Source: Actinomyces israelii DSM 43320 (GTDB lineage Bacteria > Actinomycetota > Actinomycetes > Actinomycetales > Actinomycetaceae). From it: a DNA stretch of 64,000 bases. Where the stretch lies: positions 1 through 64,000 of the forward strand of contig NZ_JONS01000016.1 of assembly GCF_000711965.1 (NCBI RefSeq), written 5' to 3'. Position numbers and translations under genes: made by a program. The notes under the pieces were generated by a model. It was given only the letters and a program-made list of their open reading frames with translations. It ran no database searches and was not told the origin of the DNA. Each line of letters begins with the position of its first letter. Position 1 is the first letter of the stretch. Positions 2,625 through 47,175 of the stretch are shown here, piece after piece.

Positions 2625-5600
2625 TGCGGCTGCACACGCTGACCATGACCGGTATCGGCCCCTACGCGGGCACCGAGACCATCGACTTCGACCGCTTCAC
2701 CGCCTCCGGCCGCTTCCTGCTCACCGGCCCCACCGGTGCGGGCAAGACGACCATTATCGACGCCATCGTCTTCGCCCTGTACGGGCAGGTCGCCGACTCG
2801 GCCGGCTCGTCCAAGCAGCGCCTGCGCTCCACCCTCGTGGACGGCGCCGCCGCCTCCGAGGTCGACCTGACCTTCTCCACCTCGGCCGGCGTCTACAGGG
2901 TCCTGCGCAGCCCCGAGTACCGGCGGCCCAAGAAGCGCGGCACCGGCACCACCCGGCAGAACGCCTCCGCCAGGCTGTGGCGCCTGGCCGCCCCCGGCGG
3001 GCGGCCCCTGGACGATCCCCTCACCCGCCTGGACGACGTCGGCGCCGAGGTCGCCCGCGTCGTGGGGCTCAGCCGCGACCAGTTCACCCAGACGGTGGTG
3101 CTGCCCCAGGGGCGCTTCGCACGCTTCCTGCGGGCGACGTCCGCGGATCGCCACGCCCTGCTGCGCGACGTCTTCGGCACCGCGATCTTCGACGCCATCC
3201 AGGCCGAGATCGCCGAGCGCGGCCGCCTGACCGACCGGAAGACCCAGGCCGCCCGCCAGGCGCTCCGGGCCCGCGTCGAGCTCGCGGCCCCGCTGCTGGC
3301 GGCCCTGCCCGTCCCGGGGGCCGGCGACGACGCTCCCCCGGAGGGCGCCGACGCTGCCGGCAGCGGCGCCGCCGGGCCCGCTGCGTCCGCCGAGCCCGCC
3401 GGGGCTGCCGCGCCCTCCCTGGACGAGCGGCTGGCCGCGCTGGCGGAGCAGGCCGGCGCCGCCGTCCCGGATGCCGACGCCATCGCCGTCGTCGGCGAGG
3501 AGGCCCTTGCCCGCAGCCGCGCCGCCCTGGCCCCGCTGGCCGATGCCGTGGAGCGCGCCCGGGCCGAGGCGGCCGAGGCGCGCACGGCCGCGGAGGCCGC
3601 CGTCGACCTGCGCCAGCGGCTCGAGCGGCGCGAGGCGCTCCTGGCCGAGCAGAACGAGCTCGACGCCCACCGCCCCGACCACGACGCCGATGTCGCCCGC
3701 CTCGACGCCGCCCGGCGCGCCTCCCGGGTCGCCACCGCCCTGCACCGTCGCGCACGCGCCCTGCGGGACCTCGTCTCCGCTCGGGACCTGGCGACGCGGT
3801 CCCTGGGCGTGGACGCCCACCTGGCCGCCGAAGACCGTGAAACCGCCACCGCAGCGACCCTCGCGCACCAGGCGCCCGACGGCGCCCCCGACCTGGAGGA
3901 CCCCCGCCGCCTTCGACGCGCCGAGGAGCACCTGGCCGCCGCCGCGGCCCGCACCCGCACCCTCGCCGGAACCCTCGAACCGCTGGTCGCCCTCGAGACG
4001 GACCTGGCGGACCGCCAGGAGGCACTGGCGCACCAGCAGGCCGACCTGGATGCGCTCCGCGCGGATGTGGACGAGCGCGCCCGGGTGCTGGCGGCCCGGC
4101 CCGCCCGTCACGCCGAGCTCGAGACCTCCCTGGAGGCCGCGCGCCGAGCCGAGGCCCGCCTCCCCCAGGCCCGCGTGGACCGCGAGACCGCCGCCGCGCG
4201 GCGCGACGCCGCCGCCCGTGCCGAGGACCTCAGCGCCGGGCTGGACGCGAGCCGGCGGGCCGTCGCCGAGGCGACCGCCGCCGTGCAGGAGGCCAAGGCG
4301 CACGCCGCCGCCCAGCACCGCGCCTGGCTGGAGGCGACCGCCGGCTCCATTGTCGCCGAGCTCGTCGACGGCGAGCCCTGCCCCGTGTGCGGCTCCCCGG
4401 AGCACCCAGCCCCCGCCGCCCCGGAGTCCGGCTCGGTCAGCCGCTCCCAGGTCGAGCGGGCCGACGCCGACCGCGCCCGCGCCGACGAGATCCTGACCGA
4501 AAGGGCGCGCGAGCACGGTGACCTGGACCGCGAGCACCGCGCGGCCCTCGACGCCTCGGGCGCCCGTCCCCTCGCCGAGCTCGAGGCCGCGCTGGCGGAG
4601 GCGGCCGAGCGCCTCCGCTCGCTCGCTGATGCCGCACGCCCCGCCGCGGAGCTGGCCGAGCAGCTGGCCGGCTTCGCAGAGGAGACCGCCGCCATGCGAG
4701 ACGCCCTGGAGGCGGACCGCACCGCGCTGGCCGAGGACCGGGCGCGCCTGGCAGCAGCGCAGACCGCTCTTGAGCAGGACCGGGCGCGCTGCGCCGGTGC
4801 CGCCGGCGAGCACGCCACGGTCGCCGGCCGGCACCGTTCGCTCCTGAGGACCGCCCGGGCCGCCGAGTCGGCCCGCACGCACCTGGCCGCTGTCCGCGCC
4901 GCCGCCCAGGAGGCCGCCGGCGCCTCGGCCGACCTGGCCGAGGCCCTGTCCGGGGCCGGTTTCGCCGAGGCGGCGGAGGCCGAGCGGGCCGCCCTGCCGC
5001 CCGCCGAGCTGGAGGCCCTCGCCGAGGCCGTCGACCGCGAGCGCGCCGACCGCGAACGCGTCCGCCACGCGCTGACCCAGGACCCGCGGATCGCCGCCCT
5101 CACCGGCCAGGAGACCGCCGACATCGCGGGCGCCCGCCGTCTCCTGGAGTCCGCCGAGAAGGCGCGCGACGCCGCGCTGGCGGTCCACGCAACCGCCCTG
5201 GAGTCCCACCGGCACCTGGAGGAGGCGCTGGCGGCCGTGGACGGGGCCGCCACCCGGCTCGTCGAGGCCCTTGAGAGCTCCCGGGCGCCGGCTCTGGTGG
5301 CCGCACTGGTCGCCGGCCGCAATGACGCCGCCGCGCCCCTGGCGACGTGGGTCCTTCTCGACCGCTTCGCCGAGGTCCTCGTCTTCGCCAACAGCCGTCT
5401 GGCCCAGATGTCCTCGGGACGCTACGAGCTCGTGCGCGTCGACGACGAGGCCGGCTCGGCAGGGCGCCGCGACCGCGGGCTGGGGCTGGGCGTCGTCGAC
5501 CGCTTCTCCTCCGGCAGGGTGCGCGACCCCAAGACGCTCTCGGGCGGGGAGACCTTCTACGTGTCCCTGGCGCTGGCCCTCGCCCTGGCCGACGTCGTCA

Positions 5601-5830
5601 CCGCCGAGTCGGGGGGCGTCGCCATGGAGACCCTCTTCGTCGACGAGGGCTTCGGCTCCCTCGACCCCGAGACCCTTCAGGCCGTCCTGGCCGAGCTCGG
5701 GCGCCTGCAGGCGGGCGGGCGCACCGTCGGCATCGTCTCCCACGTCGAGGAGCTGCGCCGCCAGATACCCGACCGCATCGAGGTGGTCAGGGCGCCGTCG
5801 GGCTCAACGCTGCGCATCACCGCCTCCTAG
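2624..5830 (+). CDS. sbcC: Exonuclease SbcCD ATPase subunit SbcC
   Basis: Rad50/SMC-like ATPase, partner of SbcD. Of its 1068 residues, the N-terminal lobe carries Walker A GPTGAGKT (residues 35-42). Long Ala/Glu/Arg-rich coiled coils flank a zinc hook CPVC near residue 587. The C-terminal lobe has the ABC signature LSGGET near 972 and Walker B with catalytic Glu (TLFVDEGFGSLD) near 1003. The protein appears complete. The start overlaps the sbcD stop by one base, as usual for this operon. Confidence 0.95.
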   Translation: MRLHTLTMTGIGPYAGTETIDFDRFTASGRFLLTGPTGAGKTTIIDAIVFALYGQVADSAGSSKQRLRSTLVDGAAASEVDLTFSTSAGVYRVLRSPEYRRPKKRGTGTTRQNASARLWRLAAPGGRPLDDPLTRLDDVGAEVARVVGLSRDQFTQTVVLPQGRFARFLRATSADRHALLRDVFGTAIFDAIQAEIAERGRLTDRKTQAARQALRARVELAAPLLAALPVPGAGDDAPPEGADAAGSGAAGPAASAEPAGAAAPSLDERLAALAEQAGAAVPDADAIAVVGEEALARSRAALAPLADAVERARAEAAEARTAAEAAVDLRQRLERREALLAEQNELDAHRPDHDADVARLDAARRASRVATALHRRARALRDLVSARDLATRSLGVDAHLAAEDRETATAATLAHQAPDGAPDLEDPRRLRRAEEHLAAAAARTRTLAGTLEPLVALETDLADRQEALAHQQADLDALRADVDERARVLAARPARHAELETSLEAARRAEARLPQARVDRETAAARRDAAARAEDLSAGLDASRRAVAEATAAVQEAKAHAAAQHRAWLEATAGSIVAELVDGEPCPVCGSPEHPAPAAPESGSVSRSQVERADADRARADEILTERAREHGDLDREHRAALDASGARPLAELEAALAEAAERLRSLADAARPAAELAEQLAGFAEETAAMRDALEADRTALAEDRARLAAAQTALEQDRARCAGAAGEHATVAGRHRSLLRTARAAESARTHLAAVRAAAQEAAGASADLAEALSGAGFAEAAEAERAALPPAELEALAEAVDRERADRERVRHALTQDPRIAALTGQETADIAGARRLLESAEKARDAALAVHATALESHRHLEEALAAVDGAATRLVEALESSRAPALVAALVAGRNDAAAPLATWVLLDRFAEVLVFANSRLAQMSSGRYELVRVDDEAGSAGRRDRGLGLGVVDRFSSGRVRDPKTLSGGETFYVSLALALALADVVTAESGGVAMETLFVDEGFGSLDPETLQAVLAELGRLQAGGRTVGIVSHVEELRRQIPDRIEVVRAPSGSTLRITAS

Positions 5831-5914
5831 CATCCCGCCTCATCAGCCGGTCTCGAGTATCTGGTGGTAGCGTCCACAGCGCACCGCCGGCCCCTGAGCG
5901 GACTCGTTCCTCCC

Positions 5915-5960
5915 GCCCCACCGCCCCAGCTGCTCGCGCCCCACCGCCCCAGCTGCTCGC
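5915..5960. repeat. Perfect 23-bp tandem duplication
   Basis: The 23-bp unit at 5915-5937, beginning GCCCCACCGCCCCAGCTG and ending CTCGC, is repeated exactly at 5938-5960 in non-coding DNA downstream of sbcC. Two copies only; probably a slippage product. Confidence 0.85.
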
Positions 5961-6176
5961 GCCCCTCGACAGCCTCAGCCAGACCAGGTGCCGGCCCCGT
6001 ATCGCCATGCCCAGAGCTCAACAGAAGCTAGAAGCTGAAGACGCGGGACACCAGACAACTGGTTCCGGGGCGGGCCTGCGGCTTCTTTCTCGGCGAGATC
6101 AGCTCGAGGCGCCCGCCTGACGCCCTGCCTGACCCCCGGAGAGCTTGGAGACCCGGCGGCGGGCCCCGAGCCCTCC

Positions 6177-38516: not shown

Positions 38517-39410
38517 ATGCGAGGCATCATTCTGGCCGGAGGCTCCGGCACGCGACTCAACCCGATCACCCTGGGCGCCTCCAAGCAGCTCATGCCGGTC
38601 TACGACAAGCCGATGATCTACTACCCGCTGAGCACCCTCATGCTCGCGGGCATCCAGGACGTCCTGGTCATCACCACCCCGCACGACGCCCCCAGCTTCC
38701 ACCGCCTGCTCGGCGACGGCTCCCAGCTGGGGGTCAACCTGTCCTACACGGTCCAGGAGGTCCCCAACGGCCTGGCCCAGGCCTTCGTCCTGGGGGCCGA
38801 CTTCATCGGCTCCGACAGCGCCGCCCTGGTCCTGGGCGACAACATCTTCTACGGCCCCGGCATGGGCACCCGGCTGCGCCGCCACACCAGCCCCGACGGC
38901 GGCGTCGTCTACGCCTACCAGGTCGCCGACCCCACCGCCTACGGCGTGGTGGAGTTCGACGCCGACCTCAAGGCGATCTCGATCGAGGAGAAGCCCGCCC
39001 GGCCCAAGAGCGACTACGCCGTGCCCGGGCTGTACTTCTACGACAACGACGTCGTCGGCATCGCCAGGGCCCTCAAGCCCTCGGCCCGCGGGGAGTACGA
39101 GATCACCGACGTCAACCGCGCCTACCTGGACGCCGGGCGCCTGAAGGTGGAGGTCCTCCCCCGCGGCACCGCCTGGCTGGACACCGGCACCTTCGACTCC
39201 CTGGCCGACGCCACCGGCTTCGTGCGCACCATCCAGCACCGCCAGGGTCTGACCATCGGCTGCCCGGAGGAGGCCGCCTGGCGCATGGGCTTCATCGACG
39301 ACGACGGCCTGCGCGCCCGGGCCGAGCCACTGGCCAAGTCCGGCTACGGCCAGTACCTCCTGGACATCCTGGCCCGCTCCCAGCGCGGCCACGGCGCCGG
39401 CCGGTCCTGA
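38517..39410 (+). CDS. rmlA: Glucose-1-phosphate thymidylyltransferase
   Basis: 297 residues, the first step of dTDP-L-rhamnose synthesis. The nucleotide loop GGSGTRL is at residues 8-14. [32 protein letters not shown] and [14 protein letters not shown] are all RmlA signatures. Its partners RmlB (58998-59999) and RmlCD (52611-54035) are further along the window. The last 40 codons are duplicated as a remnant at 47056-47175. Confidence 0.96.
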
Positions 39411-39547
39411 AACACTCACCGCGCTGACCGGCATGGACGGCGACATGGTGAACGATAACCGTGCAGGGGGGGAGCAGCCACCGCCAACCTGATCCGCACG
39501 TCTGCCGAGAGGTTGCTCTACCCCGATCGAGCAGGTGTGTACGCGCA

Positions 39548-40360
39548 ATGACCGGGACGAGAGCCAGGATCAACAGCGCAGTGACGTTAACGGCTATATT
39601 TGTCGGCGTCATGGTGGTTGTCGCCTGCGGACCCGAGTCCGCCCATTATGGCATAACGCCGTACGTACTGATCGCATCGCTAGCCGTCGTCTCATTGGCG
39701 CTGCTGATCAGAAGCAGGACCCGGAAGGCCATGGAACGACGCCGTCGGGATCAGGTGATCGCGGATGCTGTCCATCAGGAAAGACTCAGTCTCACTGAGC
39801 ACCTACATCACATCATCTCGAACCGGATCGCCTCTATCGCAGTTCAGGCGAGCGCATGCCTGCTCGCGGACGAATCCGATCCGCGCGTTGCACTCAGAAC
39901 GATAGAGTCGGAAAGCCGCGCCGCTGCCCGGGAGATGCGCCGGCTCCTGGCCCTGCTGCAATCCAGCACCCACGTCCCGGTACCTACCGCGCCATTGCAG
40001 CAGATCTATGCGCAGGCTAGCGCCTCCGGTGTCAGCCTGGCGGTCAAACACACAACAGCCTTTCACAGCAGGAAGGCGGAAGAAGCTGCATCGTTGGTGA
40101 TACACGAGTCTCTCATGAACGTCCTGCGGCACGCCGGCGGCGCACCCACCGAGGTAAGAATTAGCAGAGAAAACGAGAACATCCGCATCATCGTACGCAA
40201 CGAAGCCCCCGAGCCCGCGCCGCCCGCCTCACCCGGCGCCGGGATCGGGCTGCTCCTGCTGCAAAAGAAGTGCAACTCACTCGGGGGGAGCATCACTTCA
40301 GGCGAGACGTCGAACGGGTATATTGTCGATGCAGTTATCCCTGACCCCCAGGACGACTGA
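39548..40360 (+). CDS. DesK/NarL-type sensor histidine kinase
   Basis: 270 residues. Two membrane helices (about 10-27 and 38-54) precede a HisKA_3 domain (QERLSLTEHLHHIISNRIASI) and a HATPase domain (HESLMNVLRHAGG, GAGIGLLLLQKKCNSLGG). The phospho-acceptor His should be H87. The acidic residue that normally follows it (HD or HE) is His here, which could weaken autophosphorylation. The short sensor with almost no extracellular loop resembles bacteriocin-stress sensors of the LiaS type. It is 10 bases upstream of its regulator, and probably senses the lasso peptide or its damage. Confidence 0.85.
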   Translation: MTGTRARINSAVTLTAIFVGVMVVVACGPESAHYGITPYVLIASLAVVSLALLIRSRTRKAMERRRRDQVIADAVHQERLSLTEHLHHIISNRIASIAVQASACLLADESDPRVALRTIESESRAAAREMRRLLALLQSSTHVPVPTAPLQQIYAQASASGVSLAVKHTTAFHSRKAEEAASLVIHESLMNVLRHAGGAPTEVRISRENENIRIIVRNEAPEPAPPASPGAGIGLLLLQKKCNSLGGSITSGETSNGYIVDAVIPDPQDD

Positions 40361-40370
40361 TGGGAAACTG

Positions 40371-41063
40371 ATGGGAAAAAGAATCAGAGTTCTCATCGTT
40401 GACGACCAGCTGCTGCTGCGTCGCTCGCTCACCACCATACTGGAGAGCAGCGGAGGCATCGAGGTAGTTGGCGAGTCCGGTTGCGGAGCGGATGCGATCA
40501 AGGATGCCCTCCGGCTCAAGCCCGATGTCATACTGATGGATATCCGCATGCCGGGTGAGATCGATGGGGTGGAGGCCACTAGAAGAATCCACTTGCACCC
40601 CTCTGTCACAGGGACGAAGGTGTGCATGCTCACGGTCTTCAGCGAAGACCAAAAGGTTGTCCAGGCTCTACGCAATGGTGCGGTGGGGTACATAACTAAA
40701 GATGCACCACCGGAAGAGGTCATCAATGCAGTGCGCTCCTTACACCTGGGACACTCGGTCCTCCCTTCAGAGGCACTATCCCTGGCGTTAGCACAGTCTC
40801 CCTCCATCCATGCCCCGACAAGCATCGAAGAAGAACTGACCCCTCGCCAGGCCGAGGTCCTGGCGCTCATCGCCACCGGAATGTCCAACGCGGAGATCGA
40901 AGCCACCCTGCATATCACGCACTCCACACTGAAATCTCATGTCGCAGCACTACTGAAGAACCTTGAAGCCCGCGACAGGGCGCAACTGGTAGTGGCCGCC
41001 TACGAAGGCGGCCTGGTCCAACCACGACGTTCTCAAACGAACATCAGGAAGAACCGACCATAA
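40371..41063 (+). CDS. NarL/LuxR-family response regulator
   Basis: 230 residues. The receiver domain has D11-D12 and phospho-acceptor D57 (LMDIRMPG), with K near 103 (YITKDAPP). A LuxR-type HTH follows (LTPRQAEVLALIATGMSNAEIEATLHITHSTLKSHVAALL). It pairs with the kinase upstream. It is convergent with the lasso protease gene, only 16 bases between stops. Two-component pairs of this kind occur in characterised class I lasso clusters. Confidence 0.9.
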   Translation: MGKRIRVLIVDDQLLLRRSLTTILESSGGIEVVGESGCGADAIKDALRLKPDVILMDIRMPGEIDGVEATRRIHLHPSVTGTKVCMLTVFSEDQKVVQALRNGAVGYITKDAPPEEVINAVRSLHLGHSVLPSEALSLALAQSPSIHAPTSIEEELTPRQAEVLALIATGMSNAEIEATLHITHSTLKSHVAALLKNLEARDRAQLVVAAYEGGLVQPRRSQTNIRKNRP

Positions 41064-41079
41064 CCCCATGGCAGAAGAC

Positions 41080-41796
41080 CTAGGCTCCCGTCCCCTTACC
41101 CATCCCGTATCTCTCCGCATCATGGCGATGTGGCCTCACGGAGAGTACAGTGACAAACGAGGACAATGATCCAGGCTCCCCAACCGGACAGCCATCGACC
41201 TCAATCCATGCATGAGCGGCGAATGGCGAGGTGCGGAACCCGCTGCACCAGTCAGGGGACGTTCCCTGACACCGACAATAGATGAAGGCCGACACGGAGC
41301 GGAGCAGACACCCCATCCCCGAACATCTCGCACTGACAGCACAAACTGCGTACCTGGCCCTTCCAGCCTGCACCGCGTCCGCTGGGTCACTCTTTCTCCC
41401 GACCCATTCAAGAAAGTTACAGATCCTTCGCGGGCTCATACGAGCAACCAACGACCCCGCGCCTACAGCGAATAGCGCCCTCGCTCTCTCCGAAAGAGTA
41501 ATTCTCACCGACGCCTCAGGCCCGACCGGGATGGCCACATCAATCACCCTCGACAAAAAACTCGCCTCTGACATCTGTGCGACTACAGAGTCGATATCAT
41601 TAAGAACCTCCCCCTCGTCAACCTCCATGCTGACAGATATTCTCTTAGCTGTCTCCTCCTTCGACAGTCCAGACAACAACCTCTCCAGGACAGAGGACGC
41701 AGTGCGGTTCAAGCGGAAATAAACCCCTCTATTCGAATCCAAAACGATTGCCCCATCGTCCACGTGACTGAGAATAATACCTTCACCAAGTCGCAC
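41080..41796 (-). CDS. Lasso peptide leader peptidase, fused RRE (B1) and transglutaminase-like (B2)
   Basis: 238 residues. Residues 1-85 are a PqqD-like RiPP recognition element (VDDGAIVLDSNRGVYFRLNRTASSVLERLLSG) that binds the precursor leader. Residues 95-230 are a transglutaminase-like B2 cysteine protease with the triad C163 (GMGCLLRS), H195 (AAHAWIEVDG) and D201. It cuts the leader before core Cys1. GTG at 41796 follows the cyclase stop by one base. Fused B proteins are the proteobacterial norm; Gram-positive clusters usually split B1 and B2. The extra cysteines (C152, C158, C174, C176, C184) are unusual. Confidence 0.85.
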   Translation of the reverse strand: MRLGEGIILSHVDDGAIVLDSNRGVYFRLNRTASSVLERLLSGLSKEETAKRISVSMEVDEGEVLNDIDSVVAQMSEASFLSRVIDVAIPVGPEASVRITLSERARALFAVGAGSLVARMSPRRICNFLEWVGRKSDPADAVQAGRARYAVCAVSARCSGMGCLLRSVSAFIYCRCQGTSPDWCSGFRTSPFAAHAWIEVDGCPVGEPGSLSSFVTVLSVRPHRHDAERYGMGKGTGA

Positions 41797-41797
41797 C

Positions 41798-43588
41798 TCA
41801 CACCCCCAGATGCCGAGAACCCATGTTACGTAACCATCTTTCTACCTCAAGTGTGGATTGAATAGCATGGAGCTCAGCAGTATCGTTGACACCCGACAGC
41901 ACCGCGCGCCTCAGCTTATCCGCATCAACAATACCGAGGTCCATCAGGTAACACTCGTCAAAATAACTGCGCAAACTCTCTCGATTCGCCTCCATCGCCC
42001 TATACAGCTCCATGCTGTAGTCGCCTTTGCTCCTTCGCGCAAACGCGGATGAAGGTACCATCCCCCTCATGGAGTCCTTGAGCAAAGACTTACCTCTGCC
42101 GGCCTCGGTCCGGTCGCCCACATCGAGCATCAGGGACGCCAGCACCACTTCACAGTCCAGAAATGGCGACTGCCATTCGACCACATCGCGTCCAAATCTG
42201 CTTGATATTTGATCTAACAACTCAGCCTCGTATGAGAGTGAAGCGAGAGCCTGATGCCGAGCCTGATCAGGCGAAAGCGGCTGTATCTCCTGATCGTAAA
42301 GAAGATGGACTGCCTCCCCAACGGCCTGGAGAGCATCACGGTGAACCCAGTCAGGAATTTCCATCGCGTTCCCCCAGGAAAGATCAACGGCAGATCTCCC
42401 TCCGCTAAACGTCCAGGACTCAAGAAGGTCTGAATGAAATGGCGTGGCGCTCCGGGCCTCAGAATACAGGTCGACAAGCTTTACTCTATTTCTCTTAGCA
42501 GCACGCCTTAAAGTCAACAGGGAACTGAAACCATATCTCTGATAGTGCGACCACAGCTGGGCCGGCATAGAGGTGAACAGCTCATCTCCACCAAAACCGG
42601 TGAAGTGACTCGTCACACCGTTATCTGTACTGGATTTCGCAACGGCCCGCAGATACATGCGTCCCGCACCCCAGAGGAAGGGGCCCCCAGTCTCTGGCTC
42701 CTCAACCTCTACATCTGAGCGAAAGAAAATATTCGCGATCTCATTGCCGATGAGACGAGGCTTAATGGCGATGTCGCTTAGAACCCGGGAGGCCCACACA
42801 TGGTCCTCGTTGCTCGGATCAGATGCAACATAATGATAGGCATCGATATTACACGCGCAGTGATGCAGCATATATACAACCGCTGTTGAATCGAGACCCC
42901 CGGAACAATCGACTCCCACGCGATCATCGCTCCCTACCAAGGTGGAAACGACGGCCGGAAGCAGGCTCGACAAGTCGTGCACCACCTGATCGCGATCGGC
43001 GTACGCCTCAGGGAGGCGCCAAACCCGCGTTACTTTAACACCGCTACCCCGAATTTCCAGCCTCTCTCCGACCGATACTCTATTCACTCCGTTCCCGATG
43101 GTGGTTCTATTGAATGGCCAGGGAGCGCCCAGAGGCGTCACACTAAGTGCCAGTGAAACAGTATTCAGATCCGAGGTGCCACACCCCTGAACGAGACGAC
43201 CAAGATCAGTTGACGCGATCCTCCCCCGCCCACGCACACTCCAGAACATGGGATCCCTGGTCAAGAAAGGCTGATGGCAGTAGATCACTTTTTCATGATG
43301 TGTAACAGCGACCCAACGACCACCGATCTCACAGACCTCTCGACTGAAGACCTCGATATCGGCCGCGGAGCGGAACAACGTCTTGATGCGCTCCCGCACA
43401 CCATAATCCCCGAAAACGACTAGCATCCCAATCCGCTCATCTGCAACTGAGTAGTCGCTCGCTTGACTAAAAGCAGTCACGCACGGGCGTCCCGAGCTGT
43501 AACGAGACAACGCGATGAATCCATCAGGAATACATGGGTCACTGCTATCGCCATCCTCCAGGATCAGGATACCGTACCGTGCCACCAA
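41798..43588 (-). CDS. Lasso peptide macrolactam synthetase (asparagine synthetase-like cyclase)
   Basis: 596 residues. The N-terminal part resembles the Ntn glutaminase domain of AsnB but starts MVARYG without a catalytic Cys2, as in lasso cyclases. The C-terminal synthetase domain has the ATP motif VGVDCSGGLDSTAVV near residue 230 and SHFTGFGGDELFTS. It would adenylate the Asp9 side chain of the precursor and close the ring onto Cys1. GTG at 43588 follows GGCTAGGAGAG. It lies 84 bp downstream of the precursor gene, separated by a strong hairpin. Confidence 0.9.
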   Translation of the reverse strand: MVARYGILILEDGDSSDPCIPDGFIALSRYSSGRPCVTAFSQASDYSVADERIGMLVVFGDYGVRERIKTLFRSAADIEVFSREVCEIGGRWVAVTHHEKVIYCHQPFLTRDPMFWSVRGRGRIASTDLGRLVQGCGTSDLNTVSLALSVTPLGAPWPFNRTTIGNGVNRVSVGERLEIRGSGVKVTRVWRLPEAYADRDQVVHDLSSLLPAVVSTLVGSDDRVGVDCSGGLDSTAVVYMLHHCACNIDAYHYVASDPSNEDHVWASRVLSDIAIKPRLIGNEIANIFFRSDVEVEEPETGGPFLWGAGRMYLRAVAKSSTDNGVTSHFTGFGGDELFTSMPAQLWSHYQRYGFSSLLTLRRAAKRNRVKLVDLYSEARSATPFHSDLLESWTFSGGRSAVDLSWGNAMEIPDWVHRDALQAVGEAVHLLYDQEIQPLSPDQARHQALASLSYEAELLDQISSRFGRDVVEWQSPFLDCEVVLASLMLDVGDRTEAGRGKSLLKDSMRGMVPSSAFARRSKGDYSMELYRAMEANRESLRSYFDECYLMDLGIVDADKLRRAVLSGVNDTAELHAIQSTLEVERWLRNMGSRHLGV

Positions 43589-43605
43589 TCTCTCCTAGCC
43601 TCCGC

Positions 43606-43650
43606 TCGGTGGGGGTGCGCATATGACTACATCATACGCACCCCCACCGA
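43606..43650 (-). terminator. Hairpin between lasso precursor and cyclase genes
   Basis: On the transcribed strand TCGGTGGGGGTGCG pairs perfectly with CGCACCCCCACCGA (14 bp). The stem continues through a 2-base bulge with TATGA/TCATA and a 5-base loop. No U-run follows, so it is more likely an attenuator or 3' mRNA stabiliser than a full terminator. That would give high precursor and low enzyme expression, as reported for other lasso operons. Confidence 0.7.
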
Positions 43651-43672
43651 ACACTATCAGGTTCTCCTCATG

Positions 43673-43801
43673 TCAGATGCAGATGGGAACGAGTCCGCAG
43701 CCGAGAAAATCCCGACAATCCCCCCACCACAGGCACCGAGTGACGTCGGAGAAGTCTCCGAGCACCACCATCCTAGGCGCCGTGTATGAAATGTGTGACA
43801 A
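43673..43801 (-). CDS. Class I lasso peptide precursor (siamycin/sviceucin-like)
   Basis: 42 residues from TTG 43801, with a near-perfect SD AAGGAGGTGA (43816-43807) five bases upstream; an in-frame GTG at 43810 overlaps that SD. Residues 1-22 are the leader: Y6-T-A-P9 (YxxP) and L14-G-D-F17 are RRE-binding features, and T21 is the conserved Thr at -2. The core, residues 23-42, is CLWWGDCRDFLGCGLVPICI. Cys1, 7, 13 and 19 and Asp9 match class I lasso peptides exactly, predicting a 9-residue Cys1-Asp9 ring with disulfides 1-13 and 7-19. The core length and W-GDC-DFLGCG pattern are closest to sviceucin as I remember it. It sits just upstream of the cyclase and protease genes. Confidence 0.9.
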   Translation of the reverse strand: MSHISYTAPRMVVLGDFSDVTRCLWWGDCRDFLGCGLVPICI

Positions 43802-43833
43802 CGCTCTCACCTCCTTCCCAGGACAGGAACACC

Positions 43834-43856
43834 GCTGATCATCTGCTCAGATCAGC
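43834..43856 (-). terminator. Small inverted repeat before the lasso precursor
   Basis: GCTGATC (43834-43840) and GATCAGC (43850-43856) flank a 9-base spacer in the 104-bp gap between permease 2 and the precursor gene. It could be an operator for the response regulator or part of an upstream terminator. No clear promoter hexamers were found in the gap. Confidence 0.35.
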
Positions 43857-43905
43857 AGAAGAATGACCGACGAGGTCCTCTCCCCCTTTCTTGAACCCCG
43901 CCCGC

Positions 43906-44589
43906 TCATGAATCACCATAGACGAAACGCCCGACGCCGGCACACCCGATACCCATGATCCAGGATGTAAGCACAGCGACAGAAGAAGCCTCATAGGAGA
44001 GATCACTCTTCAGGAACAGATCCGCACTAACCTGCGACGGCAGCCACTCGACCCAGTCCGTCAACGGCATTAACACCGGGGGAGCCACCACCAGCAACAC
44101 CAGACTTACACTGAGTGTCGGCACAACGGCTCTTACCAGGAACGCCAGCAGCGCCGGAAGCATGCCCATAACTGCAAGATGGATGCTGCTATAGCACACA
44201 ATACGTACAGCCTCCCCGCTGACCTTTTCCAGGATTACGGCAGAGGCAGCCGACATTGAGGCCAGCCCCAGCAGAAAAAGCACCACCGAGAATAGCGCAA
44301 TTTTGGCCGTCACCAGGATCGATCGTTGCGGTACCGCAGAAATAGTGGTATATATCTGCCCTCCTTGGTACTCCTGACCACTGAGAACAGTCCCGAGCAC
44401 AACAAAGCCGATCGCGATATAGTCAGGAATCGTTTTCAGAATATCCAGGTCTACCATCCGCCCCTGATCTCCAAACCGAGACTCGAACACCAGCGAGACT
44501 GTTACAGAAAATACGACAGTACACACGAAGACCGCCCATGTCACCGGCACGGAGACGATCTTCTTGAACTCGGAAGCTACAGTACTCAT
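43906..44589 (-). CDS. ABC-2 type permease (lasso locus, second)
   Basis: 227 residues. Six hydrophobic segments are visible, beginning FKKIVSVPVTWAVFVCTVVFSVTVSLVFES, with GQEYQGGQIYTTISAVPQR between helices 2 and 3. That sequence is the motif of bacteriocin-immunity permeases of the LanE/LanG and BcrB type. ATG at 44589 overlaps the preceding permease stop (ATGA). Confidence 0.82.
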   Translation of the reverse strand: MSTVASEFKKIVSVPVTWAVFVCTVVFSVTVSLVFESRFGDQGRMVDLDILKTIPDYIAIGFVVLGTVLSGQEYQGGQIYTTISAVPQRSILVTAKIALFSVVLFLLGLASMSAASAVILEKVSGEAVRIVCYSSIHLAVMGMLPALLAFLVRAVVPTLSVSLVLLVVAPPVLMPLTDWVEWLPSQVSADLFLKSDLSYEASSVAVLTSWIMGIGCAGVGRFVYGDS

Positions 44590-45365
44590 GACTGCGCATC
44601 CCTCGTCACCCAACTCACGACAATAATCACTACCGCCAGTAGAGCCCATGCCGCACATAAATAGAAACCGGTTGCCGCGTCCACGGCGTTCGTTACAGGA
44701 GACTCCACCAAGAACGTACTGAGCGCCGCCGTGTCCGGTAGATACCTAGCCGAATCGGTAACCAGCGAGAGAAGACGACTGAATGAGAGGACCGTGCTGT
44801 TCGCGAGAAGAACAGCTAACGGCAGCACACCACTCCGGGTCACCGCCGTGAAGGCGCAGGAAATCAATGCCATCATCACCCAGAACACTGACACTCCAGC
44901 GACGCGCCGCCAGCATGTCCCATCCAGTGGGCTAGCGTACTCTCCGAGTATGCGCCGTGACGTAATAATCGTTACTGCCGTCGCCACAACGGAAGTCACA
45001 ATCACCCACATGCACAGCACGACGATCTTCGAAGTCACTGCTCGAAATCGCCGAGGCACTGCAACCATGGTAGTCGTCAATTGCCTCGATCGCCCGACTT
45101 TCTGAGCATTTCTTGCGTACTCGCTCGACATGATAATCACGCCGATCACCACCACACCGATAGTGCCAAAAATCAGATGCCCGAATCCTGCATCGACGGT
45201 AGACGTGCTCAGCAGCCCTCTTTGCCCCCCGGTACTGAGAGCACGATGCGCCGCGCGCGCACTGAGCGCGGCCAGACCAACAGGAACCAGAATGCAGCTC
45301 ACGGTTGCCACCCAGATCGACGTCAGAGTGCACAACTTCTTTAGCTCAGCCCCTACCAGCATCAT
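44586..45365 (-). CDS. ABC-2 type permease (lasso locus, first)
   Basis: 259 residues. It starts MMLVGAELKKLCTLTSIWVATVSCILVPVGLAALSARA, with about six helices and SSEYARNAQKVGRSRQLTTTMVAVPRRFRAVTSKIVVL between helices 2 and 3. That is the same architecture as the next permease. One ATPase with two dissimilar permeases is the LanFEG immunity-transporter layout, so it probably expels the mature lasso peptide from the membrane. ATG 45365 overlaps the ATPase stop (ATGA). Confidence 0.82.
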   Translation of the reverse strand: MMLVGAELKKLCTLTSIWVATVSCILVPVGLAALSARAAHRALSTGGQRGLLSTSTVDAGFGHLIFGTIGVVVIGVIIMSSEYARNAQKVGRSRQLTTTMVAVPRRFRAVTSKIVVLCMWVIVTSVVATAVTIITSRRILGEYASPLDGTCWRRVAGVSVFWVMMALISCAFTAVTRSGVLPLAVLLANSTVLSFSRLLSLVTDSARYLPDTAALSTFLVESPVTNAVDAATGFYLCAAWALLAVVIIVVSWVTRDAQS

Positions 45366-46069
45366 ACTGAAGCACCGCTCTTCGTGTAGGCGAAGAAGGC
45401 GGACTCCAGATCGGAGTACCCCCTGGTGATATCTGCAAGTGCTCCAGCCGCGGTGATGCGGCCCTGCGATATGACCACGATATCATCTGCAATCTCAGCC
45501 AGCTCAGACATCAGGTGACTCGAGAGCAAAACTGTTCCACCCATATCGACATGCTCTCTCAGCAAACCCCTCATCCAGCGCACCCCCTCGGGATCCAACC
45601 CATTCACGGGCTCATCCAGGACGAGGTACTCAGGACTGCCCAACAAGGCAGTGGCAAGTCCTAGGCGCTGCCCCATTCCCAACGAGTATGTTCCGATGCG
45701 CTGATTCTCCGCGCCGCTCAGCCCCACCTGCTCAAGAACCTCAGGCACTCGCCTAACGGGTATCTTATTGCTGGTCGCGACCCAACTAAGATGAGCTCGA
45801 GCCGAGCGCATCGGGTGGGCACCAGGACCGTCCAGCATCGAACCCACGATGCGCAACGGGTACCGATACGCCCGATAATTCATCCCACCGATGCTCGTTG
45901 TCCCGGAGCTAGGCCTATCCAGCCCCAGTAGGATACGCAACGTCGAGGACTTCCCTGAGCCGTTGGGACCCACGAAGCCCGTCACCCTGCCCGACGCCGC
46001 CGTGAAGGACACGTGATGAAGGACAGTCCGCCTCCCATGTCTTTTCACGACGTCATTGATCACAACCAT
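45362..46069 (-). CDS. ABC transporter ATP-binding protein (lasso locus)
   Basis: 235 residues. Walker A is GFVGPNGSGKSS, the signature YSLGMGQRLGLATALLG, Walker B YLVLDEPVNGLD and the switch HLMSELAEIADDIVVIS; this is the BcrA/LanF type. ATG 46069 (MVVINDVVKRHGRRTVLHHVSF) was chosen; an extension to 46105 is open but lacks an SD. It is the first gene of the minus-strand run ATPase-permease-permease-precursor-cyclase-protease. No separate lasso exporter of the LanT or McjD type lies in the window, so this transporter may serve both export and immunity. Confidence 0.88.
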   Translation of the reverse strand: MVVINDVVKRHGRRTVLHHVSFTAASGRVTGFVGPNGSGKSSTLRILLGLDRPSSGTTSIGGMNYRAYRYPLRIVGSMLDGPGAHPMRSARAHLSWVATSNKIPVRRVPEVLEQVGLSGAENQRIGTYSLGMGQRLGLATALLGSPEYLVLDEPVNGLDPEGVRWMRGLLREHVDMGGTVLLSSHLMSELAEIADDIVVISQGRITAAGALADITRGYSDLESAFFAYTKSGASV

Positions 46070-46204
46070 GATCACAGTCTCGCAAACAACATGGCAGGTG
46101 TACATCGGACGTCAGGATGATTCACTTCGACGCATGGGCCTACGGGCCCACGGGTGGAGCCCGTCAATGTGCCTTGTCAGCAGACTATTGGCGAGCCCAA
46201 GACG

Positions 46205-46910
46205 GAGATGCCCGGGTCGGTGGGGAAGGTGCGGGCGCCAGCCACGGCGTTGGCGTCCGCCCGCCGTGAGGGCGAGGCCCCGGCCTCATGGCGGGCGGCG
46301 ATCTGCGCCACCAGCTCCCTGGTCTCCTGGCCGCTGGGGCGGGCCTGGGCGTCGACCGGGTCGGTGAAGAAAGACCTGTCGGATGCCGAATCGGGTGGGG
46401 TTCAGCCGCAGGGTGCGGCGCATGCGGTGGGCCGGCGCCGAGTCGAGGCCCGACAGGACCTCCACGGCGCGGCGCGGAGCCCGGAATCCGGCCACCGCCT
46501 CGAAGCGGGTGAGGGCCAGGACCGTCTCGGGCTTGTGGCTGGCGTCCCTGTGGCTGCGCTCGGGGTCCTCCAGGGCCGGGCCGGCCTCGTTCTCGCGGGC
46601 GTATCCGTCGGCGGCCTGATCCAGGCCGGGGTGTACCTGGGGGGACAGCGTCCGCTGGGGGGCGATGATCGTGAGCAGGTAGGGCAGCCGGGCGCCGAAG
46701 CGCCGCACGACGTCCTCGCCCAGGAGGCGCTGGGGGGGGACCGGAGTCGATGAGTGCGGCCGGGCTTGCGCCGTCGGCCAGGCGGGTGCGCCCCGCCGGG
46801 TGGGTGCTGTACCGGGCCTCGGCCCAGGGATCGTCGTCGGGCTGGCTCCTCAGCAGCTCGGGGGTCGCCGTGCTCGACCCCCAGTCATGGCGCTGGCGGG
46901 CGGGCCCAGG
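46205..46910 (-). pseudogene. Degraded partial copy of manA
   Basis: Reading down the minus strand, the remnant resembles ManA from about residue 12 (DWGSSTATPELL ... PWAEARYSTHPAG) to about residue 237, and lacks the last 160 residues. It is broken by frameshifts at the G8 run 46732-46739 and near 46365-46375, where GTGAAGAAAGACCTG has extra bases relative to manA. The middle part (46286-46708) still reads RRFGARLPYLLTIIAPQRTLSPQVHPGLDQA. GC content is like the core genome, not the adjoining island. Confidence 0.88.
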
Positions 46911-47055
46911 GGATTCCAAGGGATTCCATAGGCGCACACCGCACAGCCCGCAGCCCCTCCAGGAGCGCAGGAAGGGGTCACAGCTGGGTACAGGTGGGCA
47001 TGGCCGAGGCGGCGAGAAGGTGCCCGCATGGGTATTCATAGGACCATAGGACACA

Positions 47056-47175
47056 GAGGCCGCCTGGCGCATGGGCTTCATCGCCGACGACGGCCTGTGT
47101 GCCCGGGCCGAGCCGCTGGCCAAGTCCGGCTACGGGACCTACCTGCTGGGGCTGCTGGACCGCGGACGGGGGTGA
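47056..47175 (+). pseudogene. C-terminal remnant of rmlA
   Basis: The plus strand reads [20 protein letters not shown] followed by LAKSGYGTYLLGLLDRGRG and a stop. This matches the last 45 residues of RmlA (39270-39410) with only a few changes. The first 250 codons are missing. Together with the manA remnant in the same relative orientation it is a second, decayed copy of the manA-rmlA pair. Confidence 0.9.

What the first reader, a model, noticed from the sequence alone, without database searches (positions are those of the whole stretch)
43673..43801. Unrecognised class I lasso peptide precursor with a TTG start
Seen: a 42-codon minus-strand frame behind a near-perfect SD, upstream of a cyclase and a fused RRE-protease. 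Its core is CLWWGDCRDFLGCGLVPICI, with Cys at 1, 7, 13 and 19 and Asp at 9. Known: siamycin, aborycin and sviceucin have the same Cys and Asp positions, a Cys1-Asp9 ring and 1-13/7-19 disulfides. The leader has YxxP, LGDF and Thr at -2, as lasso leaders do. Standard gene callers would miss it because of its size and TTG start. Class I lasso peptides are known mainly from Streptomyces-type soil actinomycetes; one in an Actinomyces-like genome appears novel. The W3-W4, R8 and P17 residues make this core distinct.
Basis: partly seen in the sequence, partly recalled or inferred. Interest (0 to 1): 0.95.

Follow-up and report, generated by a model that had tools for sequence, protein, structure and literature searches.

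The report
Sviceucin-like lasso peptide locus in Actinomyces
This Actinomyces genome carries a complete-looking gene cluster for a knotted, disulfide-rich peptide of a type characterised so far from soil Streptomyces; it is a new member of a known kind, and a close cousin has already been noticed in print.

Summary
The minus-strand TTG frame 43801-43673 encodes a lasso precursor: its leader passes NCBIfam's lasso leader model, and its 20-residue core has Cys1/7/13/19 and Asp9 and matches solved class I lasso peptides (sviceucin 13/20 identical). A cyclase, an RRE-protease, a LanFEG-like ABC transporter and a two-component system surround it, in the gene order of siamycin/sviceucin-type loci from Streptomyces-like genomes. 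Actinomyces denticolens DSM 20671 has the same cluster at the same site; its core is 17/20 identical and the precursor is under purifying selection. "Unrecognised" is only partly right: a 2020 rumen survey reported an A. denticolens core >70% similar to Ssv-2083. W3 is not distinctive, since sviceucin has it. What the tools add: the cluster is a ~7.8-kb low-GC island between duplicated rfbA 3' ends, with the site empty in two of five other congener loci examined. A strong hairpin follows the precursor gene. The fused RRE-protease is one frame in the window but two overlapping frames in A. denticolens, beside a T run, so the fusion is recent or an assembly indel. No disulfide oxidoreductase or epimerase was found among the island ORFs scanned. 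New member of a known kind; ring, threading, disulfides and activity are inferred.

The parts
43673..43801 (-). lasso precursor gene A (leader 43736-43801, core 43676-43735, stop 43673-43675)
43807..43816 (-). Shine-Dalgarno AAGGAGGTGA before the TTG start, identical in A. denticolens
43603..43653 (-). hairpin (21-bp stem, G-T pairs allowed) between precursor and cyclase genes, no T run; -45.6 kcal/mol for the intergenic stretch, z -8.1
41798..43588 (-). lasso cyclase C (PF00733; SGGLDST motif); start possibly GTG 43585
41080..41796 (-). RRE (B1) plus leader protease (B2) in one frame; PqqD residues 16-80, Transglut_core3 residues 108-218
41509..41568 (-). B1-B2 junction (model residues 77-96, low confidence), beside a TTTTTT run; two frames in A. 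denticolens
43906..44658 (-). probable second membrane subunit (G) of the ABC transporter; no Pfam match, 72% identical to the A. denticolens copy; membrane role inferred from position and hydrophobic sequence
44586..45365 (-). ABC-2 type permease (E)
45362..46105 (-). ABC ATPase (F), best NCBIfam match lantibiotic-protection ATPase TIGR03740, below its cut-off
40323..41063 (+). LuxR-family response regulator, convergent to the operon
39461..40360 (+). sensor histidine kinase (HATPase_c below the curated cut-off)
39270..39377 (+). left direct repeat: 3' end of the intact rfbA gene
47056..47163 (+). right direct repeat: second rfbA 3' end, 87% identical over 108 nt
39411..47163 (.). inserted island (spacing of the two repeats 7786 nt); GC 53-60% from about 39.5 to 46 kb against 72% for the window

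Best explanation
A horizontally acquired gene cluster for a class I-type, sviceucin-like lasso peptide. Proposed pathway: (1) precursor A is translated from TTG. (2) The RRE domain of B binds the leader (YxxP...LGDF). (3) The cysteine protease domain of B cuts after Thr-Arg. (4) Cyclase C adenylates Asp9 and joins it to the amine of Cys1, trapping the tail in a nine-residue ring. (5) Disulfides 1-13 and 7-19 form, probably without a dedicated enzyme because none was found in the island. (6) The FEG ABC transporter exports the peptide and/or protects the cell. (7) The adjacent two-component system regulates the cluster. (8) The hairpin after A keeps precursor transcript in excess over C and B. 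Likely role: inhibition of Gram-positive neighbours. Shown here: the genes, their domains, homology, selection, synteny and the insertion footprint. Inferred: every chemical step, the regulation and the activity.
For: Leader model and lasso B2 model NF033537 passed; PqqD and Asn-synthase domains over their Pfam cut-offs. Core matches sviceucin 2LS1 (E 6.4e-5), RP 71955, MS-271 and specialicin. B's RRE matches lasso B1 proteins TfuB1 and TbiB1 by sequence and by fold. The A. denticolens precursor is 83% identical with dN 0.079 / dS 0.51, the core alone 0.067 / 0.51. Same order F-E-A-C-B2 in six of six loci fetched from Streptomyces-like genomes (five class I, one class III-like), with F 51-55%, B 41-50% and C 28-32% identity in tblastn; B1 was matched separately in two of the six; the response regulator has 43-46% homologues in all six. 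Hairpin right after A in the window and A. denticolens (z -8.1, -6.8) and within 110 nt after A in all six of those loci.
Against: No transcript, mass or activity. The A. denticolens DSM 20671 cyclase gene changes frame inside the coding region, so at least one copy of this cluster may be dead. Trees do not nest the window pair inside the Streptomyces-like class I group. No disulfide oxidoreductase was found and no second ABC ATPase lies behind B, unlike the six Streptomyces-like loci, which all have one there. TIGR03740, the cyclase models and the lasso PqqD model NF033530 are matched below their NCBIfam cut-offs.
Confidence: 0.86

Rival explanations
1. The cluster is a decaying or silent acquisition: the gene set is recognisable but makes no peptide in the window's strain.
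For: In A. denticolens the cyclase is split between frames. The window's B differs from its relative by a frame change. Only 2 of 49 genomes of the genus, the window's own included, carry this precursor. The 2020 survey found no lasB in A. denticolens PA, but its BAGEL4 run found lasB in none of its genomes, so that weighs little.
Against: All window genes are open, motifs recalled as catalytic (SGGLDS in C; Cys, His and Asp in B) are present in the sequences, and dN/dS is about 0.08-0.24 across A, B and C, so the genes were under selection for most of the time since the split.
Confidence: 0.15
2. The single-frame RRE-protease is an assembly or sequencing indel in a T run; the real genes are separate overlapping B1 and B2 as elsewhere in Actinobacteria.
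For: A. denticolens has B1 and B2 in two overlapping frames. The frame difference sits beside a run of T. In another window frame a TGA lies just before a GTG that matches the A. denticolens B2 start. A review states that such fusions occur only in a subset of Proteobacteria (PMC7549694, passage).
Against: The fused frame is clean, and a model gives two folded domains joined by a low-confidence linker. Natural fusion by one small indel is equally simple. No reads were available.
Confidence: 0.4
3. The mature peptide is mainly a signal or sensor-kinase modulator acting through the neighbouring two-component system, not an antibiotic.
For: A response regulator and kinase are part of the island, and relatives of both are found in all six Streptomyces-like loci. 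Siamycin I directly inhibits the kinase FsrC, and VanS is named as target of sviceucin and siamycin I (PMC11872507, passages).
Against: The LanFEG-like transporter suggests self-protection. Siamycin I binds lipid II (same passages). The kinase could simply regulate or sense.
Confidence: 0.15
4. The frame is a chance ORF and another peptide is the precursor.
For: Short size and TTG start.
Against: Leader model passed, solved-structure matches, conserved in a second species under purifying selection, and the only such spacing in the window.
Confidence: 0.01

Closest known systems
Sviceucin (PDB 2LS1), class I lasso peptide of Streptomyces
   Same: 13 of 20 core residues including all Cys, Asp9, W3 and the GDC.DFLGCG block; no C-terminal Trp; epimerase gene reported absent (PMC9266682 passage)
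   Different: L2, W4, R8, L15-V16-P17, I20; no counterpart found of the DoxX (SviE) and thioredoxin-like (SviF) genes reported for svi (PMC9266682 section 4); B in one frame where svi has split B1/B2
Core and cluster of Actinomyces denticolens (DSM 20671, L002; strain PA in PMC7533575)
   Same: core 17 of 20, same gene order, same rfbA/licC-like site, hairpin at the same place
   Different: ATG start; B1 and B2 in separate frames; cyclase frame interrupted; lower GC3 (about 40% in the N-terminal part of C). Its core is 15 of 20 identical to sviceucin
Siamycin I/MS-271, aborycin/RP 71955, specialicin
   Same: Cys and Asp positions, leader pattern, F-E-A-C-B order, hairpin after A in loci encoding these cores
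   Different: 10 of 20 core residues for MS-271 and RP 71955; they end in FW, and MslH epimerase genes are reported for them; an extra ABC ATPase behind B2
Arcumycin
   Same: reported without sviE/sviF and without the epimerase (PMC9266682)
   Different: sequence not compared: reviews disagree on its class (class I in PMC9266682, class II in the table of PMC12427821)
LanFEG lantibiotic immunity transporters
   Same: one ATPase plus two probable permeases; TIGR03740 is the best NCBIfam match
   Different: 176 bits against a cut-off of 309.75

Membership tests
Lasso peptide precursor | leader with YxxP, hydrophobic/Gly-Phe motif and Thr at -2 | tested here: met
   NF033521 25.6 bits over 19; aligned with seven other precursors or cores
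Lasso peptide precursor | linked cyclase (C), RRE (B1) and cysteine protease (B2) | tested here: met
   C identified by PF00733 and homology, its NCBIfam lasso models being below cut-off
Class I lasso peptide | Cys at core position 1 and Asp at 9, four Cys at 1, 7, 13, 19 | tested here: met
Class I lasso peptide | Cys1-Asp9 macrolactam with threaded tail | not testable with these tools
   needs MS/MS or NMR
Class I lasso peptide | two disulfides, 1-13 and 7-19 | not testable with these tools
   no oxidoreductase domain among the Pfam-scanned island ORFs; reported as dispensable in sviceucin and MS-271
Siamycin subgroup | C-terminal Phe-Trp and MslH-type epimerase gene | tested here: not met
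   core ends ICI; the only PF09587 (CapA-type) match in the genome is on another contig
E-B (RRE-protease) fusion type | both domains in one open frame | tested here: inconclusive
   one frame in the window, two frames in A. denticolens beside a T run; reads not available
Horizontally acquired island | atypical composition, flanking repeats, empty sites in relatives | tested here: met
   empty in two of five other loci fetched; no integrase seen
LanFEG immunity transporter | ATPase over the curated TIGR03740 cut-off | tested here: not met
   176.1 against 309.75 bits

The most novel reading that the evidence does not exclude
An intact class I lasso peptide system outside Streptomyces, brought into Actinomyces on a low-GC island that inserted at the 3' end of rfbA. 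It runs with a minimal gene set (no disulfide oxidoreductase, no epimerase, only FEG as transporter) and with the first actinobacterial RRE-protease fusion, so the two disulfides must close by themselves or with housekeeping enzymes.
Probability: 0.35. Interest if true: 0.55.

Novelty: new member of a known kind. Interest (0 to 1): 0.42.

Why it matters
A 2022 review says all characterised class I lasso peptides come from Streptomyces (PMC9266682 section 4). Siamycin I binds lipid II, and both it and sviceucin interfere with sensor kinases of Gram-positive pathogens (PMC11872507 passages). A compact version with a shorter gene set in another genus would give a new scaffold variant and a natural test of whether class I disulfides need any dedicated enzyme. 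The island footprint and the empty sites show how such clusters move between species.

Tried and rejected
Chance ORF: rejected. Descent from the genus's other lasso clusters: B is closer by identity to all six Streptomyces-like loci (43.6-50%) than to the five other Actinomyces loci (33-42%), and C is closer to them than to most (29-35% against 26-33%), but the trees leave the window/A. denticolens pair on a deep branch of its own (C: joined at 94/94 with long-branch G043), so neither descent from Streptomyces nor from congeners is shown. Direct Streptomyces donor: unlikely on composition, since GC3 is 40-61% in C and B of the two species. Plasmid carriage: no near DNA match in 72,556 plasmid records; only distant C and B relatives under 60% identity, 26 and 19 records, and one weak precursor match (E 0.5). 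Intrinsic terminator after A: no T run; the terminator scan does not list it.

Superseded work: the first tree used badly bounded ORFs and was replaced, where L027 gave no C match and is missing from the C tree. The first A and B2 codon counts had a wrong offset and were redone. The simple stem finder failed on the L002 hairpin because of a mismatch near its loop; the fold is used instead. L052 was read at a wrong offset and re-read (a Cys-free, class II-like precursor). An earlier count gave 6006 for the A. denticolens precursor start; 6003 is right.

Full report
OBSERVATION. The frame exists exactly as described. The strongest support for the TTG start is comparative: in Actinomyces denticolens DSM 20671 (L002) the homologous precursor has ATG at the same codon behind the same AAGGAGGTGA. 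The leader passes the curated lasso leader model, and the four-Cys/Asp spacing is unique in the window and absent from 30 shuffles.

WHAT THE CORE IS. By sequence alone, at E <= 10, the 20-residue core finds five distinct sequences in the PDB set, all of class I lasso peptides: sviceucin (E 6e-5), RP 71955, an MS-271 analogue, specialicin and the MS-271 precursor (the peptide names for 2ls1 and 6ak0 are recalled or from reviews). Identity is 13/20 with sviceucin and 10/20 with MS-271 and RP 71955. A. denticolens shares W3, W4, R8 and P17 and differs at three positions (15, 16, 20).

THE MACHINERY. C carries the asparagine-synthase domain with SGGLDST; its NCBIfam lasso-type models are matched below their cut-offs. 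B carries a PqqD-like RRE and a Transglut_core3 protease, and passes the lasso B2 model NF033537. Its RRE matches TfuB1 and TbiB1, solved lasso B1 proteins, by sequence and by Foldseek (TM 0.77-0.84 on the target). The model has mean pLDDT 74.1: ten-residue means of 82-96 for residues 101-220, only 55-77 for the RRE part 1-70, and below 50 for residues 77-96. Upstream are one ABC ATPase, one ABC-2 permease and a probable second membrane protein without a Pfam match; downstream, convergent, a response regulator and a kinase. Among the island ORFs scanned, Pfam found no thioredoxin, DoxX or CapA-type domain; the genome's single PF09587 match is on another contig.

RELATIVES. Of 49 genomes of the genus (the window's included), 6 have a B relative at E <= 0.001. 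13 match the precursor at E <= 1: the window's genome and G006 at 1e-24 or better, G048 at 6e-4 with a class II core, ten at 0.1 or worse that were not translated one by one. In the family draw, 8 of 200 genomes match the precursor profile at E <= 0.01; translation shows class I cores only in those same two, the others being class II-like or chance. Order: 7 of 347, none class I besides the window. Phylum: 3 of 396, likewise. That genus, called Streptomyces-like here because its loci encode siamycin-, aborycin- and specialicin-type cores and its class I genomes are 5.9-9.9 Mb, gave 6 of 246, five class I and one class III-like. With B as query, 2 of 296 genomes of the phylum match at 1e-25, the window's and G888 (37%). 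These are samples, so 'only two species' holds only for what was drawn. The single genome-contig scan, which may leave out the window's own genome, returned A. denticolens alone.

SYNTENY AND PHYLOGENY. The six loci fetched from Streptomyces-like genomes (L037-L042; five class I, L041 class III-like) keep the order F-E-A-C-B2 and carry a regulator related to the window's; a separate B1 was matched in two of them. The window adds a probable second permease (G) and lacks the further ABC ATPase that lies behind B2 in all six. Trees group the window with A. denticolens at 98-100% but do not place that pair inside either the Streptomyces-like group or the genus's other lasso clusters.

SELECTION. 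Window against A. denticolens: precursor dN 0.079, dS 0.51; core alone 0.067 and 0.51; B2 0.10 and 1.27; C 0.17-0.21 and 1.36-1.54; B1 0.25 and 1.08. The C values after the A. denticolens frame change are no higher than before it, so that break is recent or a sequence error.

ISLAND. GC falls to 53-60% between 39.5 and 46 kb in a 72% window. A. denticolens C and B have GC3 of about 40-44% between neighbours at 95-97%. The island is bracketed by the 3' end of rfbA: 108 nt at 87% in the window, 62 nt at 97% in A. denticolens. Six genomes besides the window's, of 19 searched, have the licC-like right neighbour at E <= 1e-60. A. denticolens carries the island at this site. Of the five other loci fetched, rfbA and the licC-like gene are adjacent in two, G039 (aligned parts about 210 bp apart) and G030 (about 175 bp). 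In G043 the genes lie apart in another arrangement, and in G007 and G046 no rfbA match lay in the stretch. No integrase was seen among the island ORFs scanned, so the agent of insertion is unknown. The window's right-hand repeat reads more like the G039 rfbA tail and the left-hand one more like A. denticolens (sequences), which would fit an incoming island that rebuilt the end of rfbA; this is inference by eye from few sequences.

HAIRPIN. Immediately after A's stop, the window folds at -45.6 kcal/mol (z -8.1) and A. denticolens at -39.6 (z -6.8), with 0 of 200 shuffles as good in either; paired changes between the two stems are visible by eye but were not counted. In the six Streptomyces-like loci a 13-15-bp stem lies within 110 nt after A; 0-1 of 200 shuffles reach it, while MFE z-scores are weaker, -1.9 to -3.5. 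It has no T run. Processing, stabilisation or partial termination to favour A over C and B is the likely role, untested.

FUSION. A review places RRE-protease fusions only in a subset of Proteobacteria (PMC7549694, passage). The window's one-frame B would be an exception, but its relative uses two overlapping frames and the difference lies beside a T run. I leave real fusion versus indel open. The window's B2 also keeps its own possible GTG start after a GAGGGTG sequence, so B2 may be made separately either way.

PRIOR PRINT. PMC7533575 (section 13 and passages read) reports the A. denticolens PA core as >70% similar to Ssv-2083. That Ssv-2083 is the sviceucin precursor is recalled; the A. denticolens DSM 20671 core is 15 of 20 identical to sviceucin, which fits. 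The core string CLWWGDC was in no paper of the library. 'class I lasso peptide' with 'Actinomyces' gave one paper, seen in the listing only; 'lasso peptide' with 'Actinomyces' gave 38, of which 30 were listed and three looked into; 'Actinomyces denticolens' with 'lasso' gave three. So the window's own peptide and its island were not found in print by these searches, but its kind in the genus was.

VERDICT. [quoted passage not shown] Moderately interesting because a relative was already reported and the mechanism is the expected one.

Noticed in passing
G000 contig C4, L026 3111-6085: A second lasso cluster in the same genome: cyclase in two ORFs, split B1 (4981-5244) and B2 (5241-5672), and two class II-like precursor candidates (5753-5881, 5951-6085).
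   Followed up: partly
L002 6210-7999: The A. denticolens DSM 20671 cyclase gene changes frame near residue 385 while both halves keep low dN/dS.
   Followed up: yes
L042 (G419), minus strand, stop at 4425: Another sviceucin-like core, CLPSGDCPDFLGCGRALWCI, in an unnamed Streptomyces-like genome.
   Followed up: partly
L033 (G442): A siamycin-type core with Glu at position 8, CLGVGSCEDFAGCGYAVVCFW.
   Followed up: no
L041 (G640): A class III-like core with a class I-like leader, GAPLTDCVDWLGTSAWVC, whose cyclase groups with the sviceucin-like one.
   Followed up: partly
L053 and L057 (G1260 contig C11): Two tandem precursors with class IV-like cores, GRPVWGFDSKDQCVIWNCE and GRPVWGFDSKDQCVIFNCQ.
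   Followed up: no
L043, L049-L051 (G1002): Four class II-like lasso precursors in one genome of the family.
   Followed up: no
L052 (G269 contig C6): A Cys-free, class II-like lasso precursor at a contig end in another family of the order.
   Followed up: no
window 46106-47055: About 950 bp of high-GC sequence between the ABC ATPase and the right rfbA repeat with no Pfam match in the two long ORFs scanned; A. denticolens has much less there.
   Followed up: partly
PMC12427821 table against PMC9266682 text: Reviews disagree on arcumycin: listed with a Cys-free sequence as class II in one and as class I in the other.
   Followed up: no
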